NCBI GenBank assembly: GCA_001462345.1
Contig: LIUM01000009.1
Coordinates: 1-52,413, forward strand
Direction of reading: 5' to 3'
Origin: Fibrobacteria bacterium AD312
Lineage (GTDB): Bacteria > Fibrobacterota > Fibrobacteria > Fibrobacterales > Fibrobacteraceae
DNA length: 52,413 nucleotides
In this document: positions 42,188 to 51,979 of the stretch, piece by piece
Layout: every line of letters begins with the position of its first letter
How positions within the stretch are numbered: position 1 is the first letter of the stretch
Program-made: the position numbers and the translations under genes
Notes under the pieces: model-generated
Databases searched by the model: none
What the model was told of the DNA's origin: nothing
Seen by the model: only the letters and a program-made list of their open reading frames with translations

Positions 42188-43441
42188 ATGAGCTGGTCTT
42201 ATAGAGAACATCAAAAGAATATTCTATGCATGATTATGGCAGGTGGACAAGGGAGTCGTCTTCAACCCCTAACTCGAGATCGAGCTAAACCGGCAGTCCA
42301 TTTTGGTGGTACTTATCGCATTATTGATTTTGTTTTAAATAATTTCATCAACAGCGGCATTTTTAAAATTAAAGTCTTAACTCAATTTAAGTCAGACTCT
42401 CTTAACAAGCATATTTCAGCCGCTTGGAGCCTTAATACAAGCCTTGATCAGTATGTGGATCTTGTTCCCGCTCAAATGCGTACAGGTGAGGATTGGTACC
42501 GCGGTACCTCCGATGCAATCTTCCAAAACATCAATTTAATCACTGATGAACGCCCTGATTTAGTCGCTATTTTTGGCGGAGACCACATCTATAAAATGGA
42601 CATCAATCAAATGATTGATTTTCATTTGAGTCGCGCCGCATTACTTACCATTGCAGCAATTCCTGTCCCTGTCAGTGAAGCAAGCGAATTTGGTATTATC
42701 GAAGTCGATTCAGATAATCGAATGATCGGTTTTGAAGAAAAGCCCAAAGAACCAAAAGAAATGCCAGGAAACCCTGGTTGGTGTCTCGCCAGTATGGGTA
42801 ACTACATTTTTACCAGTAAATTTTTAGTACGTGAACTTCTTAATGGTTCAAAACAAGGAGCCACTGACTTTGGTAAGCACATTATTCCTGCTTTATACAA
42901 AGAATATCCTGTTTACGTCTACGATTTCAACACCAATATTGTTCGCGGAGAACAAGCCTCCACAAAAGGCTATTGGCGAGATGTTGGTACTTTAGACGCC
43001 TTCTTTGAAGCGAATATGGACCTTTGTTCCGAGACCCCTTTGTTTGACCTTTATAATCACTATTGGCCTATTAGAACGTTCAACTGGAATCAACCACCAG
43101 CTCGCTTCTTTGGAAACGATGATTTCTCCTCCTCTTATCGAGGGGCTGCCATTGATTCCATCGTTTCAGCAGGCTGTATTATTGGTGGTGGTACTGTAGT
43201 CAATAGTATTCTTAGTCCAGGGACTTCCATTCAAAAGGATGCTTTTGTAAAAGAGTCGATTATATTCCCGAATGTAACCATCGGACCTGGAGCCAAAGTT
43301 CAAAAAGCCATAATTGAAAAAGGCCTCCATATTCCAGCTGGTTTTGAAATCGGATTCGACTTAGAGCGAGATCGACAAATCTTTCATGTCACCGAGTCAG
43401 GGATTGTAGTCTTATCTAAAGATACCGTCATTAAGGCTTAA
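42188..43441 (+). CDS. glgC: Glucose-1-phosphate adenylyltransferase
   Basis: Makes ADP-glucose for glycogen synthesis. The 417-residue product has the catalytic opening MAGGQGSRLQPLTRDRAKPA, YRIIDFVLNN, GTSDAIFQN, GGDHIYKMD, EFGIIEVD and FEEKP, then a C-terminal left-handed beta-helix (SIVSAGCIIGGGTVVNSILS). Allosteric control by glycolytic intermediates is usual for the family. GAGGAAAC supports the start. Only one base separates the stop from that of the convergent dus gene. A GH57-like protein further on may also relate to alpha-glucans. Confidence 0.96.
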   Translation: MSWSYREHQKNILCMIMAGGQGSRLQPLTRDRAKPAVHFGGTYRIIDFVLNNFINSGIFKIKVLTQFKSDSLNKHISAAWSLNTSLDQYVDLVPAQMRTGEDWYRGTSDAIFQNINLITDERPDLVAIFGGDHIYKMDINQMIDFHLSRAALLTIAAIPVPVSEASEFGIIEVDSDNRMIGFEEKPKEPKEMPGNPGWCLASMGNYIFTSKFLVRELLNGSKQGATDFGKHIIPALYKEYPVYVYDFNTNIVRGEQASTKGYWRDVGTLDAFFEANMDLCSETPLFDLYNHYWPIRTFNWNQPPARFFGNDDFSSSYRGAAIDSIVSAGCIIGGGTVVNSILSPGTSIQKDAFVKESIIFPNVTIGPGAKVQKAIIEKGLHIPAGFEIGFDLERDRQIFHVTESGIVVLSKDTVIKA

Positions 43442-44656: not shown

Positions 44657-45007
44657 TTGATTGTGCCAAACGTAACTAAACAAGATTTAATCCAGGAAAT
44701 AGCCAAATCCACCGGCTTGATTCGAAATGACATCAAATTAGTCATCGAACAATTTTTAAGCCTTGTTGGAGAAAAGCTAATTGAAAACAAAACAATAGAG
44801 CTTCGTGGTTTTGGTACTTTCGTATGTAAAGGACGTAAAGCTAGGCCAGCTAGAAACCCAAGAACAGGAGAACCTGTTTTTCTAGAAGAGCGCTTCGTTC
44901 CTACATTTAAATTTTCTTCTGAAATAAAAGACAAAATTAACTTCACTGACATTCTTCAAGCTGAAAAAACGCTTACTCAAGAAGAAGTATTAAACTCCAT
45001 TCATTAA
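44657..45007 (+). CDS. HU/IHF-family DNA-binding protein
   Basis: A small nucleoid protein that bends DNA. The 116 residues follow the HU/IHF fold: VTKQDLIQEIAKSTGLI, a helix pair, then IELRGFGTFVCKGRKARPARNPRTGEPV with the arm's Arg-Asn-Pro motif (partly quoted). The family norm is about 90-100 residues, so the C-terminus is longer by about 20 residues (ILQAEKTLTQEEVLNSIH), an unusual tail. The start is TTG at 44657 or GTG at 44663. Its last 18 bases overlap the convergent RsuA-like gene. Confidence 0.88.
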   Translation: MIVPNVTKQDLIQEIAKSTGLIRNDIKLVIEQFLSLVGEKLIENKTIELRGFGTFVCKGRKARPARNPRTGEPVFLEERFVPTFKFSSEIKDKINFTDILQAEKTLTQEEVLNSIH

Positions 45008-45706
45008 TTGATTTACTTCTATAGAACTCAAATATCTCCATTCTTTAGGCTTTAATTGAGGGTCTAAATTTAAAGTTCCTATAGATAATCGACGCAGTTC
45101 CTCTACGTGATTTCCAACGGCAGCAAACATTCGTCGCACCTGATGATAAAGCCCTTCTCCAATTTCAATTTCTACTTGAGTCTCTGTCTTTTTTTCAAGA
45201 GTACGCGCTACAACAGCACGCTTTTCATTTTTTAAAATCACACCTGACAACAACTCTTTTTCTTGTGCTTTTTCTAATGGTCTTGCTAACGTCACATCAT
45301 ATCGTTTTAAGACACCCTTTTTAGGACTTTCTAAATGATGAATAAAGTCACCCTTATTAGAAAGAAGGAGTAGACCCGAAGAATCCACATCAAGCCTACC
45401 AACAGATTTAATATTCATTCCTAAAAAACGAGAGGGCAACAAGGAGTAAACCGAATCATGGTATCGTGGATTATGACTACACTCAATACCTAACGGTTTA
45501 TGCATCATAATGTACAGGTCTTCAAAAGTTGGAATTTCTTCTCCATTCACTGAAACAAAATCAGGACGAGTTTCTAATTCTATAAAAGGGTCTTCTTGAA
45601 TTTCTCCATTCAAAGCCACAATTCCCATACGAACTAAAGCACGTGAGTCTTTTCTTGAACCAAAACCCAAAGAAGAAAGTAAACGATCTAAAGTCAAAGC
45701 AGGCAT
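44990..45706 (-). CDS. RsuA-family pseudouridine synthase
   Basis: An S4-domain pseudouridine synthase of the small-subunit RsuA group. The 238 residues show an N-terminal S4 region (LDRLLSSLGFGSRKDSRALV), MMHKPLGIECS, and the catalytic GRLDVDSSGLLLLSN, followed by YHQVRRMFAAVGNHVEEL. This is the RsuA/RluB/RluE pattern; the target is not decided. It begins at the stop of the DUF2953-like gene (TAATG), so it is translationally coupled to the envelope operon though functionally unrelated. Confidence 0.92.
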   Translation of the reverse strand: MPALTLDRLLSSLGFGSRKDSRALVRMGIVALNGEIQEDPFIELETRPDFVSVNGEEIPTFEDLYIMMHKPLGIECSHNPRYHDSVYSLLPSRFLGMNIKSVGRLDVDSSGLLLLSNKGDFIHHLESPKKGVLKRYDVTLARPLEKAQEKELLSGVILKNEKRAVVARTLEKKTETQVEIEIGEGLYHQVRRMFAAVGNHVEELRRLSIGTLNLDPQLKPKEWRYLSSIEVNQLMNGV

Positions 45707-46767
45707 TAATCCTCCGCCGCTATAAGGTCTATAATTTTACGACGCCAAAAAACTAAACGAAAAGGAATTGGATTTTCTATAAATCGCTTCTTATTCCGAC
45801 GATACCAGAAATATACTCGAGCCACATAAAATAAAGCGATTAGCGACCAGAGTAAAAAATAAAACAATCGAAATTGAATTAAAAGAGTCCCTCTAATCTC
45901 AGGATTTTTTTCTTTTAACCAATCCATTTGAAACTCCCAATTTTTAAGAAAATTAACTTGGGATGTAGTAAAAGAAGAAATGGCAGCAAACGCCCCCATC
46001 TCATCATATTCCATTCGAATTCCTTGAACGACCACATTTTCAAAACGTATTTGAAATAAACGCCAAGTTCGACGAAGCAAACGCCAGGCCATACGGAGAA
46101 CCATAGAATGAAGTTTGGGATTAAACATCAGCGTCAAAAATTCTTTTTCAGTAAGTTCTCTTGTTTTCTTTGATTTCTTCGAATCTTCTTGAAAAGTATC
46201 ATCATCTATGGATGTTTCTATCGTAGCGTTTGTGTCTGCTTCTGTTTTAAATTCTGCACTTTCTTCAGAAGTAATGTCATCTATATCCGCTTGTGATGTA
46301 TCACTCGTTTCTTCTTTTGATATAACGACTTCGTTTTCATTTGAATCAGCAGCGTCAATATTCGCATCAGTCGTTTTACTTATTTCTGTTTGAGTTTCTG
46401 TATTTTTTTCTGAAGCTACGGCGTCTTCGTTCGCTTCAGATGTTTTACTAGCTTCAACATCTGATTTGCTTATTTCGTTTTCTATCTTTGATTCTGTTAC
46501 GTCTTCTAAATCATCGTCATAGAAATCTGCATTAGATGTTTTACTTTTTAATGTTTCACGAGTCTCAGAATTATAACTTGATTTTTCTTCAGTAGAATTG
46601 TTGATTGATTCTTTTTTGTTTGTAGAAAATAATGTCCATTTGAAAAACCTTATTTCTATAAGACTATCTTTTTTTGCACCGACAAAATGAAATCGGATTC
46701 GTAATGAAAAAAAAAGAAGCAAAGTTGCAAATAAAAACAACCCTGCTATAATAGAAAGGCCTATCAA
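45706..46767 (-). CDS. DUF2953-like membrane protein with acidic repeat linker
   Basis: This 353-residue protein has an N-terminal membrane helix (about 4-22), then IRFHFVGAKKDSLIEIRFF, which resembles the DUF2953 start. An acidic Ser/Thr/Glu linker follows (about 74-198), and then a basic helical region (RMAWRLLRRTWRLFQIRFENV) and another hydrophobic segment (about 305-325). The linker is made of about five diverged units of 23-24 residues, such as EASKTSEANEDAVASEKN and EISKTTDANIDAADSNEN. DUF2953 has no settled function; some members relate to sporulation in Firmicutes. Here it ends an envelope operon. It lies two bases after mlaC. Confidence 0.75.
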   Translation of the reverse strand: MIGLSIIAGLFLFATLLLFFSLRIRFHFVGAKKDSLIEIRFFKWTLFSTNKKESINNSTEEKSSYNSETRETLKSKTSNADFYDDDLEDVTESKIENEISKSDVEASKTSEANEDAVASEKNTETQTEISKTTDANIDAADSNENEVVISKEETSDTSQADIDDITSEESAEFKTEADTNATIETSIDDDTFQEDSKKSKKTRELTEKEFLTLMFNPKLHSMVLRMAWRLLRRTWRLFQIRFENVVVQGIRMEYDEMGAFAAISSFTTSQVNFLKNWEFQMDWLKEKNPEIRGTLLIQFRLFYFLLWSLIALFYVARVYFWYRRNKKRFIENPIPFRLVFWRRKIIDLIAAED

Positions 46768-46769
46768 TA

Positions 46770-47351
46770 CTACTCCGATTCGTTTGCTTTATCGCGAATA
46801 ACTTGAATCAAATCATTAAATGTTTTTGTTTTTAATATGGTAGAAAACTGCTCTTTATAATTTCTTGCTGTTGACAAGTCATCTATAATTAAGTCCCAAG
46901 CCTTCCAAGAGCCATTGACAAGATTCATTCTATATTCCAAGACAGATTCTTTGCCCTTATACCAAAGATGTGCTGTTACACGAGCTTCATCTGTACCTTT
47001 AAGTTTTGCGTCCTCATAAATTGTGGAATCCGCCCGATACATTTCTAATTTTTTTGCTGTAGAATTACGCACCATTCTTTGAAACTCATTAACAAAAGTA
47101 TCTAAAGTGGCAGGATTCTGCTCTTTCCACACATTACTCGCTAAGGATTTCTGAGCTAAAAGCTTAAAATCAAAAGAATCATTTAATAATGTTTTGATTC
47201 TTTCTTTTTCATTTTTTGATAAAGAACTCTTTTTTAACAGCGACTGTAATTCGACATCTTTTTTCTTAATTACACTGACTGGATTTTCTGCCGAAAACAA
47301 AAAGGCTGCTGAAACCAAAAAGATTGTTATTACTTTTTTTATTGAAATCAT
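46770..47351 (-). CDS. mlaC: MlaC-type periplasmic phospholipid carrier
   Basis: A soluble lipid shuttle between inner and outer membrane. The 193 residues have a signal peptide (MISIKKVITIFLVSAAFLFS), then the family pattern FDFKLLAQKSLASNVWKEQ, FVNEFQRMVRN, LEYRMNLVNGSWKAWDLIID and DLSTARNYKEQFSTIL. An AAGGAT ribosome site precedes the ATG. The other Mla genes (mlaFED) are not here; instead the gene follows a tolC-like gene by nine bases and precedes the DUF2953-like gene by two. A STAS-domain protein two genes upstream recalls MlaB. Confidence 0.88.
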   Translation of the reverse strand: MISIKKVITIFLVSAAFLFSAENPVSVIKKKDVELQSLLKKSSLSKNEKERIKTLLNDSFDFKLLAQKSLASNVWKEQNPATLDTFVNEFQRMVRNSTAKKLEMYRADSTIYEDAKLKGTDEARVTAHLWYKGKESVLEYRMNLVNGSWKAWDLIIDDLSTARNYKEQFSTILKTKTFNDLIQVIRDKANESE

Positions 47352-47360
47352 ATAATATCC

Positions 47361-48725
47361 TTATTTTGAAACATAGGTACTATGAAATTCTTCTAATGAT
47401 AAACCCGTTCTAAAAATAAGTTCAGCAAATTCAACATTATAAGAACAAATAGCAAAATAATATTTTTTTAATAAATTAACATTATCCGTATAAGCAGACA
47501 ATAGCTTTTCCGCATTTGAAGGATCTAAATCATATTGTATCGCTGTTCCTTTTAAGATTGCTTCTGTTGCCCGTAGACTTGTCTTCATGCTTTCTACCTT
47601 TTCTTTTATAGAAATCACTTTATCATATTGTTCTTCTATTTTTAACAATAAGCCTTGAGCCGCATAATTTTCTTTCATTCGTAAAGCATTATGTTCTATT
47701 CTAGCTTTTCGATAATTCTGCCAACCTTTCCAGAAATTCAAACGATAACGTAAGCCTATACCAAAAGTCCCAGACAAAGTATTCACGGCATCTTGAGCAA
47801 AAGCATTTTTCTGAATTACTTGGCGATTTCCTGCCCAAGATTTTACATATTCAAATTCAGCCATAATAAAAAATTCAGGAGCGAGTTTTGCTTCTGCTAA
47901 ATCCATCTGATAAGATCTAGCTTCTAAACCTGCTTTAAGTTGCTTTAATTCTGGATGAGATTTTATAGCAATCGCTTTTAATTCTTCTAAAGAAAGCAAC
48001 GGTTCAGAGCGTACTGTTAGCACGGTATCTACTGTTGAAAAAAGATTTCCTTCTTCTAACTGTAAAGAAAAATGAATTGCGAGTAAAACTTGTTTTAAGC
48101 CTCGTCCAGCATCTGATACGGCTTCTTGAACCACATACATATTCGACTTTAATTTGAGAAGATCCATTTGAGAAACATTAGGCTCATCGTTATCTAATGC
48201 TTCTTCTAATTTTTCGTAGGCATTATTTATTTGTTTTTCAACATCTTTAGCTAAACGATTCATTTCTAATGCTAACAGGTAATTGTAATAATATGACTGT
48301 AGCTCTACTTCTTTTTTATGTTCTCCTTGAAGTAGCCCCAATTCGTGCTGTCGAATATCTGCTTGAATTGCTTTTTTTCCAACATTATATTGCCCTAAAT
48401 TAAGAGGCTGAGTGGCCTTAATTTGCGTACCCCAATAAGGACCCATCTTTCTAAAATCCCATGCTTCAACAGTATCGCCCCATGAGTCTACATGCTCTTT
48501 TAATCCAGGAGCAGGACCAACCATCATCGAAAAAGAAAACGTAGGTAATATAACTTCTGATTTTAAAGTGGCGAGCTGTTCTTTCTTCATCGTTGAAGAA
48601 AAACGTTTTTCTGCCACAATAGGATCTTTTTTGATAGACTCGTTCACAAAGCGAAGACAATCATAAGATTCTCCCCATGCGAAAGAAAATACCAAAGACA
48701 AAACTGATAAGACACGAATAACCAT
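47361..48725 (-). CDS. TolC-family outer-membrane channel protein
   Basis: This 454-residue protein has a signal peptide (MVIRVLSVLSLVFSFAWG) and the two helical repeats of outer-membrane efflux proteins (about 110-230 and 330-430; segments such as ELQSYYYNYLLALEMNRLAKD and LLKIEEQYDKVISIKEKVE, partly quoted), with GTQIKATQPLNLGQYNVG as a barrel strand region. TolC trimers form an outer-membrane exit tunnel. No periplasmic adaptor or inner-membrane pump is adjacent; its neighbour is MlaC. The start overlaps the stop of the lytic transglycosylase gene (TAATG). Confidence 0.88.
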   Translation of the reverse strand: MVIRVLSVLSLVFSFAWGESYDCLRFVNESIKKDPIVAEKRFSSTMKKEQLATLKSEVILPTFSFSMMVGPAPGLKEHVDSWGDTVEAWDFRKMGPYWGTQIKATQPLNLGQYNVGKKAIQADIRQHELGLLQGEHKKEVELQSYYYNYLLALEMNRLAKDVEKQINNAYEKLEEALDNDEPNVSQMDLLKLKSNMYVVQEAVSDAGRGLKQVLLAIHFSLQLEEGNLFSTVDTVLTVRSEPLLSLEELKAIAIKSHPELKQLKAGLEARSYQMDLAEAKLAPEFFIMAEFEYVKSWAGNRQVIQKNAFAQDAVNTLSGTFGIGLRYRLNFWKGWQNYRKARIEHNALRMKENYAAQGLLLKIEEQYDKVISIKEKVESMKTSLRATEAILKGTAIQYDLDPSNAEKLLSAYTDNVNLLKKYYFAICSYNVEFAELIFRTGLSLEEFHSTYVSK

Positions 48726-49423
48726 TAGGGTAAATCTAGAAAATTTGAATTAGATACCAAATTCCAATATTTAGAAATAACTCTCTCATAATAGCGAGTT
48801 GGTAGAGGATGGTTCTTTTTCAAGTGGGAATCTAATAAACCTGGTCCAATATTATATGCAATAATAGCATGTTTTAGATTTTGATACTTTCCAATTAAAC
48901 GCATAAGGTAAGCAGTCCCAATGACAACATTCACATCTGGAGCCATTAAATCTTCTGGAGATTCAATTTTGTAACCAAAACGACGTCCAATACTCTTTGC
49001 CGTTTCTAATTTAATCTGCATCAAACCAAAAGCACCAGATTCAGCTCCCGATCGCATTCTTCCTCTTGCTTTTGGATTCCCATGACTTTCTTGAGCGACA
49101 ATACTTAAGATCAATAGTGGATCAATATTATACGTTCTAGAGATTTTCCAAATTTGTTCTGTGAGCTCAATTCGACTTTGTTCATTGATTTTATTCTTTG
49201 ATAAAAAAGTCAATCCCCTTTCAATTTTCACGTAATCTAAAGTCCACTTTCCATATTCTTCTAACTCTAAAATTTCTTCTCGAAGCACTTGTTCTTGGGC
49301 AAGAAGAGCATCCCATTTCTTTTGATATACAATCCAAATAGCAATAAAAACAAGCCAGAGAATCAAAGTCGAAGCATAAAAAAAGAAAAGCACTCCAGAG
49401 GATAGTCGAAGGCTAATTTTCAC
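48725..49423 (-). CDS. Membrane-anchored lytic transglycosylase (SLT domain)
   Basis: Cuts peptidoglycan glycan strands to leave anhydro ends. The product has one membrane helix near its N-terminus (FFFYASTLILWLVFIAIWIV), a coiled or helical linker, and a C-terminal SLT domain: SIVAQESHGNPKARG with the catalytic Glu, SGAFGLMQIKLETAK, and AIIAYNIGPG. The frame is open to 49513 from TTG; the GTG at 49423 has GGAG upstream and overlaps the previous gene by 11 bp, so it is favoured, giving about 232 residues. It may open wall space for the STAS- or TolC-linked complex. Confidence 0.85.
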   Translation of the reverse strand: MKISLRLSSGVLFFFYASTLILWLVFIAIWIVYQKKWDALLAQEQVLREEILELEEYGKWTLDYVKIERGLTFLSKNKINEQSRIELTEQIWKISRTYNIDPLLILSIVAQESHGNPKARGRMRSGAESGAFGLMQIKLETAKSIGRRFGYKIESPEDLMAPDVNVVIGTAYLMRLIGKYQNLKHAIIAYNIGPGLLDSHLKKNHPLPTRYYERVISKYWNLVSNSNFLDLP

Positions 49424-50102
49424 GCCTGGAGTTCTCCAAAAGTTCAAGGTAACCGACCCAGTCTCTAATAGAACCAAAGGCATGAGATGTCGTTGAATCC
49501 ACGACAAGTCCAAGATGTTGTAATGAACCTAAAGATGATTTCAATCGTTCGATCTCTTGAATAGATCTCTTTCTCTCATTTTCTAAGCTAATAATCTGCG
49601 CTTGTTGTTCAAGAATTTCGTTATTTTGTATGTAAACAATCGAGAATAAAGTAACAAACCAACCCAGCAAAATAACAAATAAAGCAACAGCAACACCAGG
49701 GCTCAAACGAAGTCCTGTTTGCTTACTGTAATTGAGACCTACTTGTTTAAGTTGTTTCAAAAGGCCTGAACGCCTAAAAGATTTTCGATTATCATACAAC
49801 TCTAAAATATGTGAGTAACGAGAAAAATAATCCCTATGTTCTTTCCCTGAAGAGATAAACACAAGCATTGCATTTTGCTTCTTTATTCGATTCAAAATAT
49901 TTAAAAATAATTCTAAATATGCATCATCAATAAAATGAGCACGCTCAAGATTCAAAAAGAAAAAGCAACCAGGCCCCTTAATTAACATTTCTAATTTTTC
50001 ACGAACAGCAGGTAGTTGCAATAGTCCAAAAGTGCCACGCAAAGTAATCTCTACTTCATCACCAGCATCATCCACCAGAATGTCCATCCAATCAGACATC
50101 AT
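49413..50102 (-). CDS. STAS-domain protein with membrane helix and coiled coil
   Basis: This 229-residue protein joins a STAS-like domain (about 5-105; EVEITLRGTFGLLQLPAVRE, then CFFFLNLERAHFIDDAYLELFLN in pieces, like the SpoIIAA/MlaB pattern but with HFIDDAYLE where a phosphorylated Ser is usual), one membrane helix (about 135-160) and a periplasmic coiled coil (about 160-195). The layout is rare for STAS proteins, which are mostly soluble or attached to transporters. MlaB is a STAS protein, so a link to the MlaC downstream is possible. ATG shares ATGA with the GH57-like gene stop. Start is ATG ATG. Confidence 0.75.
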   Translation of the reverse strand: MMSDWMDILVDDAGDEVEITLRGTFGLLQLPAVREKLEMLIKGPGCFFFLNLERAHFIDDAYLELFLNILNRIKKQNAMLVFISSGKEHRDYFSRYSHILELYDNRKSFRRSGLLKQLKQVGLNYSKQTGLRLSPGVAVALFVILLGWFVTLFSIVYIQNNEILEQQAQIISLENERKRSIQEIERLKSSLGSLQHLGLVVDSTTSHAFGSIRDWVGYLELLENSRREN

Positions 50103-51979
50103 AATAAAACTCTCCGTTTAGATAATTTTATTTTCATCCCTAACGAATCCGATTCTAAAGCAGATAACTCGACATCCCAAAAAAAGAAAATTCTTAAGCC
50201 CTGTACCGCCTGAGGAGAAGCAAATTGATTCATCCCCATAATTGGGGATAATAGAACACGTGTAGGTCGCTTAAATTCAAAACGAGTAAACCAAGCTAAC
50301 AATCGATCTTGTAATTCTAATACTTCGGCATTTGGATACAAAATTGAAACGTCATCCACCAATGAAATTTTTTTTCCGTTTATTTTCATTAACTGCGTTT
50401 TGGCGTCAAATCCTCTCATCCCGAGTTCTAATTCCGTGCCAAAATAGCCCTTAAAATCAAGATAAGTTGAATTTGTTAAACGATAGTCTAAATCAAATGA
50501 AGCGTGCTTGGAATGCAATGAAAAATGTTTATCTACATGGAAAATATGTTTTGTTTCTGGAGAAGAAAAAATTTGTTCTGAATGAAATAATAAATGAACA
50601 GACTCAGACTCTCGCTTCACTTCATAATCACAAGGAAATATCAAAGCCCCCGAACGATCTTCTACAGCAGATTGAAAACCAGAAACAGATGAAATTTTAT
50701 TCGGTAAAAAGTGATCCAAAAAGCCAACAGAAATATCACCATCATCTCGCATGGCATTAATTAAATTCACTCCCGAAGGCTTATAATTTAAGGATCGCAA
50801 ATAGGCTCCACGACCATGATCTATTAATAAAGAAAGATCTGAATTATTGACCCACACTTGTTTCTGCCCATCCAATAAAAAATCGGATACTTCTATACGA
50901 AGGCCATCAAAGCTCTCTAAACTTTCAACCGTTAATAAAACAGTGATTAAATCTTTATACGCCTTCCAGCGAACGCCTGGATTTTTTATTCCTTGATTAC
51001 CATACAAATCGCGGTAAAAAAATGGAGCCATCAAAGGCAATAGCATTTCTTCTATTTTTTCTAAATCTTCCTCACTTAGTTTTTCTAACGCATAGCGATG
51101 AACAGCTAGAAAAGATTTATGTAAAAAATTAATCTCTGGACGACGAATTAGTAATTCTCTACAGCTATGAGCTCCTATCGGAAGCCCTAAATTAGACCCT
51201 AGTGCGCTCACTAGATTCACTTTTCCTTCTGTCATCTGTTGTTCTATAACATGAGAAACAGTCCATGTTTGGTGATCTAATAAAGCGAGTTTTTCTTCTA
51301 AAGAAGTAAAAAAGGATGAAACTGAAGTAGATTCATCTAAAGGAACTTCTAAAGAGACCACAACACACTTATCATTTTTAGGTAATTTTTGAATTTCTTC
51401 TTCAAAGAAGGGTACTTTTTCTATAAAAGCTTTTGAGAGCCCTGTAGAAACAGAAATCAAACGAAGCATGGTTCCTTTATCCTCTGTAGTAAACCAGCCA
51501 AAAACAGGTGTAGAACGCCCTAAAGCAACTTGTAAATTATCATCATTCACTAACGTGTACTTAAAACTTTGAAGAGCCAACAATTCCGTCATCCCTATTT
51601 CCCAAACCATCGATGAGTTAAAATACCCGCTAGGTTCCACCTGAAATATTTTAGTGATATATTGACGATGTTTTTTTAATTGTAGCGATTGAAGACGAGA
51701 AGGAAAAAAAGGCGGCATAGAATCATAAAACCCACCCCCGATTAATTCTAAACGACCTTCTTGAACACGCGCTTTCATCCACGCTACTTCTTGAGGAGTG
51801 TATTTTACCATAGCTTCTAATACAGAGCCAGGTATGTATAAAGACAATCGAATGGACGTTCTATCTAAAAAAAGTTTTAATTCTTTAGAAAATGATTTTA
51901 TTTCTTCTACGGGAATAACGTTTAATGGAGAGAAGACATCCTTTACAAAAAGAAGAATTGAAAGTTTAATTTTATACAT
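50099..51979 (-). CDS. GH57-like protein, probably catalytically inactive
   Basis: This 626-residue protein has the overall plan of a GH57 4-alpha-glucanotransferase. There is an N-terminal (beta/alpha) barrel-like half with ELIGGGFYDSMPPFFPSRLQ (motif near 78-97) and a region at 118-127 that aligns to GxWLxERVW, reading GYFNSSMVWE. A C-terminal beta half follows with DHGRGAYLRSLNYK, like DUF1926. The residue aligned with the nucleophile Glu is Ser123, the N-terminal HQP is missing, and the usual DDGEKFG is not seen near 206-219. No signal peptide. It starts the six-gene envelope operon. A non-enzymatic sugar-binding role is inferred. Confidence 0.7.
   Translation of the reverse strand: MYKIKLSILLFVKDVFSPLNVIPVEEIKSFSKELKLFLDRTSIRLSLYIPGSVLEAMVKYTPQEVAWMKARVQEGRLELIGGGFYDSMPPFFPSRLQSLQLKKHRQYITKIFQVEPSGYFNSSMVWEIGMTELLALQSFKYTLVNDDNLQVALGRSTPVFGWFTTEDKGTMLRLISVSTGLSKAFIEKVPFFEEEIQKLPKNDKCVVVSLEVPLDESTSVSSFFTSLEEKLALLDHQTWTVSHVIEQQMTEGKVNLVSALGSNLGLPIGAHSCRELLIRRPEINFLHKSFLAVHRYALEKLSEEDLEKIEEMLLPLMAPFFYRDLYGNQGIKNPGVRWKAYKDLITVLLTVESLESFDGLRIEVSDFLLDGQKQVWVNNSDLSLLIDHGRGAYLRSLNYKPSGVNLINAMRDDGDISVGFLDHFLPNKISSVSGFQSAVEDRSGALIFPCDYEVKRESESVHLLFHSEQIFSSPETKHIFHVDKHFSLHSKHASFDLDYRLTNSTYLDFKGYFGTELELGMRGFDAKTQLMKINGKKISLVDDVSILYPNAEVLELQDRLLAWFTRFEFKRPTRVLLSPIMGMNQFASPQAVQGLRIFFFWDVELSALESDSLGMKIKLSKRRVLL

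What the first reader, a model, noticed from the sequence alone, without database searches (positions are those of the whole stretch)
45706..51979. Six-gene envelope operon joining a GH57-like pseudoenzyme, STAS anchor, lytic transglycosylase, TolC and MlaC
Seen: start/stop overlaps (ATGA, GTG overlap, TAATG) and gaps of 2-9 bp bind six genes into one unit. Known: MlaC carries phospholipids across the periplasm, MlaB is a STAS protein, TolC forms an outer-membrane tunnel, and SLT enzymes open the wall. Inference: together they could make a trans-envelope lipid or glucan handling complex, with the STAS-TM-coiled-coil protein as inner-membrane anchor and the lytic enzyme clearing the wall. The Mla transporter genes mlaFED are absent, so this is not a standard Mla locus.
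Basis: partly seen in the sequence, partly recalled or inferred. Interest (0 to 1): 0.65.

Follow-up and report, generated by a model that had tools for sequence, protein, structure and literature searches.

The report
Two-module envelope operon of Fibrobacteraceae
In rumen-type Fibrobacter relatives, one tightly packed operon joins a dead sugar enzyme, a membrane anchor and a cell-wall cutter to an outer-membrane tunnel and a lipid shuttle; comparing 168 genomes shows two older modules welded together, and suggests that in this phylum, which lacks the usual outer-membrane lipid partner MlaA, a TolC-like tunnel may take its place.

Summary
Six genes (seven with rluB) run on the minus strand with gaps of -11 to +9 bp. 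The same order holds in 63 Fibrobacteraceae loci outside the Fibrimonas branch and genus g8. The interpretation needs splitting. Module A (GH57-like, STAS-TM-coiled-coil, SLT) occurs across the phylum, including genomes without MlaC. The GH57-like protein lacks the catalytic nucleophile in every member read; the SLT catalytic Glu is kept. Module B (TolC-like, MlaC, g6) belongs to the Fibrobacteria side. In all ten f3 genomes it lies back to back with a STAS-MlaE/MlaF/MlaD/PqiC-like operon, which supports a lipid-transport role. MlaA is absent from all 168 phylum genomes, while MlaC is single-copy and nearly universal in the class. I therefore favour a TolC-like trimer as MlaC's outer-membrane partner (inference). 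The modules were joined in the ancestor of the window's order. The window's genome has MlaEFD elsewhere, but no second MlaC. A single six-protein complex is not shown. The nearest known case is the MlaEFD-TolC-TamB operon of Negativicutes, which has no MlaC. I call this a new variant of a known kind (module B) joined to an undescribed phylum-wide module (A).

The parts
50099..51979 (-). Module A: GH57-like pseudoenzyme (626 aa), no signal peptide expected, GH57 N-terminal domain plus AmyA-gluTrfs C-terminal domain; nucleophile position Ser
49413..50102 (-). Module A: STAS domain (about residues 1-105), one TM helix (about 137-155), long coiled-coil helix; phylum-wide family
48725..49423 (-). 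Module A: inner-membrane-anchored SLT lytic transglycosylase, TM plus helical stalk plus SLT domain with catalytic Glu (GTG start at 49423)
47361..48725 (-). Module B: TolC-like outer-membrane factor, signal peptide, two OEP repeats, TolC/CusC fold
46770..47351 (-). Module B: MlaC, periplasmic lipid-binding shuttle; the only MlaC in the genome
45706..46767 (-). Module B: g6, two TM segments (about 2-20 and 295-313) around an acidic Ser/Thr-rich middle; one relative of 22 matches DUF2953 weakly
44990..45706 (-). rluB-like pseudouridine synthase, overlaps g6 by 1 bp (TAATG); co-directional in most Fibrobacteraceae, probably a co-transcribed passenger

Best explanation
The operon is a fusion of two older gene modules. 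SHOWN: module A is a GH57 protein without its catalytic residues, a STAS-TM-coiled-coil protein and an SLT transglycosylase that keeps its catalytic Glu; module B is a TolC-fold outer-membrane factor, MlaC and a two-TM protein; each is inherited without the other in parts of Fibrobacterota, and they are joined in the window's order. INFERRED, module B: MlaC shuttles phospholipid between an MlaEFD-type ABC/MCE complex in the inner membrane, encoded elsewhere, and the outer membrane, where a TolC-like trimer rather than MlaA-porin is its docking partner. INFERRED, module A: the dead GH57 protein sits in the cytoplasm on the STAS domain, perhaps reading alpha-glucan state; the STAS protein passes this through its TM and coiled coil to the transglycosylase, which has its own TM and stalk, and so sets where or when the wall is cut. 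INFERRED, joining: co-expression keeps wall opening in step with TolC insertion and outer-membrane lipid supply; no stable six-protein complex is required.
For: Order conserved in 63 distinct loci. Module A without module B in f8, f10-f13; module B without module A in f3; both unlinked in f4 and Fibrimonas. In 10 of 10 f3 genomes MlaC and MlaE lie 2-3 kb apart, and TolC-MlaC-g6 is divergent from STAS-MlaE, MlaF, MlaD and a PF03886 lipoprotein; that MlaE clade is orthologous to one found elsewhere in Fibrobacteraceae. MlaA in 0 of 168 genomes against MlaC in 122 of 168 and MlaE in 41 of 41 relatives. TolC-like model matches CusC and TolC at E about 1e-18, and Fibrimonas keeps the TolC ortholog although it is unlinked from MlaC. 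GH57: Glu123 of Thermococcus glucanotransferase 1k1w aligns with Ser and is not Glu in any member read; no conserved acid at the acid/base position. STAS fold: SpoIIAA 1.6e-7. SLT catalytic Glu invariant. GH57-STAS is the closest pair: median overlap 4 bp, kept in Fibrimonas without the SLT. In F. succinogenes S85, FSU_1094, annotated MlaC, falls 3.68-fold on cellulose while MCE proteins also fall (PMC6851124).
Against: No complex was modelled and no experiment exists. The PF03886 lipoprotein that marks the MlaE1-F1-D1 operon is missing from 10 of 41 relatives, the window's own genome included, although nearly all of these keep MlaC (and TolC wherever the locus could be read), so the inner-membrane partner must differ there or the TolC/MlaC pair has another role. 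Adjacency of TolC and MlaC is not proof of contact. The glucan-sensing step rests only on the fold of a dead enzyme.
Confidence: 0.5

Rival explanations
1. All six proteins form one trans-envelope lipid or glucan machine, with the STAS protein as inner-membrane anchor, the transglycosylase opening the wall, TolC as tunnel and MlaC as carrier.
For: Strict order and tight spacing in 63 loci.
Against: Modules A and B occur without each other across the phylum and are unlinked in f4 and Fibrimonas, so no obligate complex is needed.
Confidence: 0.12
2. The TolC-like protein is an ordinary efflux or type I secretion outer-membrane factor; its place beside MlaC reflects envelope-stress co-regulation, and MlaC works with another outer-membrane partner.
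For: Canonical TolC/CusC fold and OEP domains; Fibrimonas separates TolC from MlaC.
Against: No RND, MFP or ABC exporter gene was recognised beside it in the loci read; TolC-MlaC pairing is kept in f1 to f5 and faces MlaEFD in f3; MlaA is absent throughout.
Confidence: 0.25
3. The STAS-TM protein is an MlaB substitute that binds MlaF and regulates the lipid ABC transporter.
For: STAS fold; MlaB chains appear further down the fold hits (E about 2e-3); no MlaB next to the C14 MlaEFD genes.
Against: It is found with GH57 and SLT in genomes that lack MlaC and is missing from f3, where TolC-MlaC faces MlaEFD; the f3 MlaE carries its own STAS domain; its fold is much closer to SpoIIAA/RsbV.
Confidence: 0.1
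4. The transglycosylase is a dedicated wall-opening enzyme for TolC trimer insertion, like the dedicated transglycosylases of secretion systems; GH57 and STAS only tether it.
For: SLT sits directly upstream of TolC in the Fibrobacterales loci.
Against: SLT is linked to GH57-STAS, not to TolC, in the phylum's other lineages, and f3 has TolC-MlaC without this SLT next to it.
Confidence: 0.15

Closest known systems
MlaEFD-TolC-TamB operon of Negativicutes (Veillonella parvula; Grasekamp et al. 2023, PMC10665443)
   Same: MCE lipid-transport genes next to a TolC homologue in bacteria without MlaA
   Different: Veillonella has no MlaC and uses a long MlaD with its own outer-membrane barrel; here MlaC is present and forms the conserved pair with TolC; that paper reports no MlaD barrel in the FCB group, which includes Fibrobacteres
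Mla system of E. coli (MlaA-OmpC, MlaC, MlaFEDB)
   Same: MlaC domain; MlaE, MlaF and MlaD in the genome
   Different: No MlaA in the phylum; MlaC not in an mlaFEDCB operon; TolC-like partner instead
Mpc, the chimeric Mla-Pqi system of Brucella (PMC12436622)
   Same: STAS-MlaE fusion, MlaF, long MlaD and a PqiC-like lipoprotein, the same set as in the f3 and Fibrobacteraceae MlaE1 operon
   Different: Brucella has no MlaC and the paper describes no TolC component
GH57 4-alpha-glucanotransferase (Thermococcus litoralis, PDB 1k1w)
   Same: GH57 domain and C-terminal domain, profile match 6e-24
   Different: Nucleophile Glu123 replaced in every member read; conserved acid/base missing
SpoIIAA/RsbV STAS proteins
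   Same: STAS fold
   Different: No conserved Ser in the DSSG-type phosphorylation loop; fused to a TM helix and coiled coil

Membership tests
Mla system (E. coli type) | MlaC periplasmic shuttle | tested here: met
   Pfam MlaC 5.5e-25, single copy
Mla system (E. coli type) | MlaA outer-membrane lipoprotein | tested here: not met
   0 of 168 phylum genomes; positive in two control genomes
Mla system (E. coli type) | MlaE, MlaF, MlaD in the same genome | tested here: met
   C14 operon: MlaE, ABC ATPase, MlaD
Mla system (E. coli type) | mlaFEDCB gene order | tested here: not met
   MlaC lies between TolC and g6; in f3 it is divergent from MlaEFD
Mla system (E. coli type) | MlaB STAS regulator bound to MlaF | tested here: inconclusive
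   STAS-TM protein has the fold but other linkage; binding not testable here
Mla system (E. coli type) | Phospholipid transport activity | not testable with these tools
   needs lipid-binding and outer-membrane lipid assays
TolC-family outer-membrane factors | Two OEP repeats and TolC fold | tested here: met
   OEP 1.7e-22, two stretches; CusC/TolC structural hits at about 1e-18
TolC-family outer-membrane factors | Linked efflux or secretion partners (MFP/RND/ABC exporter) | tested here: not met
   none recognised in the loci read, which were inspected by sequence and not all scanned with Pfam
GH57 enzymes | GH57 domain | tested here: met
GH57 enzymes | Catalytic nucleophile Glu | tested here: not met
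   mostly Ser at the Glu123 position; no Glu in any member read
GH57 enzymes | Acid/base Asp | tested here: not met
   no conserved acidic residue at the position extrapolated 4 residues past the end of the aligned block
SLT lytic transglycosylases | Catalytic Glu in the ES motif and the GLMQ motif | tested here: met
   invariant Glu; G(L/V)MQ kept in all module members read
STAS anti-sigma antagonists | STAS fold | tested here: met
STAS anti-sigma antagonists | Phosphorylatable Ser in the DSSG loop | tested here: not met
   loop reads DDAY in the window and is variable in relatives
Negativicutes MlaEFD-TolC-TamB | mlaEFD directly followed by tolC and tamB | tested here: not met
   TolC is divergent from MlaEFD in f3 and no tamB-like gene was recognised there; TamB was not searched with a model

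The most novel reading that the evidence does not exclude
Fibrobacterota use a phylum-wide relay in which a dead 4-alpha-glucanotransferase in the cytoplasm reads glycogen or maltodextrin state and, through a STAS-TM-coiled-coil protein, gates a lytic transglycosylase in the wall; in Fibrobacterales this relay is wired by co-expression to an MlaA-less lipid route in which a TolC-type tunnel receives phospholipid from MlaC.
Probability: 0.15. Interest if true: 0.8.

Novelty: new variant of a known kind. Interest (0 to 1): 0.52.

Why it matters
Most diderm phyla lack MlaA (PMC10665443), so what receives MlaC-borne lipid at the outer membrane of those that have MlaC is open. A phylum with single-copy MlaC, no MlaA and a TolC-type protein paired with MlaC gives a specific, testable candidate, and strengthens the link between TolC-type tunnels and MCE transport first noted in Negativicutes. 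Separately, the GH57-STAS-SLT module is an old, conserved, apparently undescribed unit that may connect carbon-store state to wall cutting.

Tried and rejected
DUF2953 as identity of g6: only 1 of 22 members matches, 3.6e-4, not accepted. The Mem_trans hit of g6 falls in the acidic low-complexity stretch and was rejected. TTG 49513 as SLT start was rejected in favour of GTG 49423. Literature searches for this operon or for a GH57-STAS-transglycosylase unit found nothing. Promoter and terminator scan was uninformative: 18 promoter-like sites against 25.6 expected. A TolC loss in Fibrimonas was suspected and rejected: the ortholog is there, unlinked.
Full report
1. Observation. The six ORFs are present at the stated place on the minus strand. 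Gaps are -4, -11, -1, +9 and +2 bp, and rluB follows at -1, so the run is seven genes. Domain assignments by Pfam: GH57 plus its C-terminal domain, STAS, SLT, OEP and MlaC; the sixth protein, g6, has none that I trust. g6 has two predicted membrane segments around an acidic Ser/Thr-rich stretch.

2. Conservation. The genome belongs to Fibrobacterota, family Fibrobacteraceae; record titles of relatives name Fibrobacter species and F. intestinalis ATCC 43854. Of 68 genome-contig loci in the window's order that come from outside the Fibrimonas branch (L098-L165), 63 carry GH57, STAS, SLT, TolC, MlaC and g6 in this order on one strand; four others are cut by contig ends and one (L165, from f2) has no g6 in range. 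STAS and SLT overlap by a median of 11 bp and GH57 and STAS by 4 bp. The count of 80 includes the same genomes fetched twice. In f2, of the same order, the first five genes are joined.

3. Two modules. A profile of the STAS-TM-coiled-coil protein finds it in 144 of 168 phylum genomes, including f8 and f10-f13, where no MlaC is listed except in one genome with 8 percent contamination. There it lies between the GH57-like and SLT genes (17 three-gene loci), often beside pyruvate phosphate dikinase. Fibrimonas keeps GH57-STAS without the SLT. Conversely, f3 genomes lack the STAS protein but have TolC-MlaC-g6. f4 has both, unlinked. Hence module A and module B are separate units that were joined in the window's order.

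4. Module B and lipid transport. In all ten f3 genomes MlaC and MlaE lie on the same contig 2-3 kb apart. TolC-MlaC-g6 is divergent from STAS-MlaE, MlaF, MlaD and a PF03886 lipoprotein. A tree puts this MlaE with one found elsewhere in Fibrobacteraceae and apart from three other MlaE clades; the window's genome has members of only those three. MlaA is absent from 168 of 168 genomes, while MlaC is found in 122 of 168 and in nearly all members of the class. The TolC-like protein has the TolC/CusC fold. From this I infer that TolC replaces MlaA-porin as the outer-membrane partner. Two facts limit the inference: 10 of 41 relatives, the window's genome among them, lack the PF03886 lipoprotein of the MlaE1 operon, yet nearly all of them keep MlaC; and Fibrimonas has TolC and MlaC unlinked. 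The other MlaEFD, on contig C14, has relatives throughout the sampled genomes and could serve in those cases.

5. Module A. In the profile alignment with 1k1w the nucleophile Glu123 aligns with Ser. That Glu123 and Asp214 are the catalytic pair of this enzyme is my own knowledge. Across the readable members from both branches of the phylum the nucleophile position is never Glu, and no acid is conserved at the acid/base position; that position was reached by extending four residues past the aligned block. The STAS fold is confirmed by AlphaFold and Foldseek, nearest SpoIIAA (1.6e-7) with MlaB chains only near 2e-3; the phosphorylation-loop Ser is not conserved. The SLT keeps its catalytic Glu. 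Both the STAS protein and the SLT have a single TM followed by a helical segment (for the SLT the helical segment is my reading of the sequence). The relay from GH57 through STAS to SLT is inference.

6. Expression. In F. succinogenes S85 the protein FSU_1094, annotated MlaC, is 3.68-fold lower in cellulose-grown than in glucose-grown cells and three MlaD-type proteins are 1.2 to 1.7-fold lower (PMC6851124). Since MlaC is single-copy in almost all Fibrobacter genomes, FSU_1094 is very probably this gene. That paper speaks of MlaABCDE; I find no MlaA.

7. Comparison. Negativicutes have MlaEFD-TolC-TamB without MlaC (PMC10665443); Brucella Mpc has STAS-MlaE, MlaF, long MlaD and a PqiC-like lipoprotein without MlaC (PMC12436622). 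The Fibrobacterota set combines the Mpc-like transporter with MlaC and TolC. I found no paper describing it, nor module A; the library holds open-licence papers only.

8. Verdict. A real, strongly conserved operon; a composite of two modules; a promising but unproven MlaA substitute; and an apparently undescribed phylum-wide module of unknown function with a plausible role in wall control.

Noticed in passing
G000 whole genome; L096:1-3438 in same-genus G002: The STAS-MlaE/MlaF/MlaD/PF03886 operon of most Fibrobacteraceae was not found in the window's genome, and PF03886 is missing from 9 other relatives of 41, although MlaC is kept in nearly all of them.
   Followed up: partly
G000:C50:9859-10077, C50:35562-35783, C40:14855-15073: Three single MCE (MlaD-domain) genes with no MlaE or MlaF recognised beside them.
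   Followed up: no
L189, L192, L193, L196, L200, L202, L208: In other lineages of the phylum the GH57-STAS-SLT module is often next to and divergent from pyruvate phosphate dikinase.
   Followed up: partly
L213-L219: In Fibrimonas the TolC ortholog is followed by a conserved gene of about 245-250 aa of unknown function, and MlaC-g6 lie elsewhere.
   Followed up: no
L223, L224; window 42188-43441: In Fibrimonas the MlaE1 gene sits next to a glgC-like glucose-1-phosphate adenylyltransferase; a glgC-like gene also lies about 2.3 kb downstream of g6 in the window.
   Followed up: no
window 47361-48725 and alignment A6: The TolC-like family has distinctive conserved motifs (GPxPG, NxW, DxDxS) that mark it as its own subfamily.
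   Followed up: no
window 46718-46747: A weak terminator-like hairpin (11 pairs, 4 G-C, T run) lies just inside the start of g6 on the coding strand; it could lower expression of g6 and rluB, or be chance (8 found, 4.8 expected).
   Followed up: no
G059:C33:11696-12115: The only MlaC found in family f8, in a genome with 8 percent contamination; possibly foreign.
   Followed up: no
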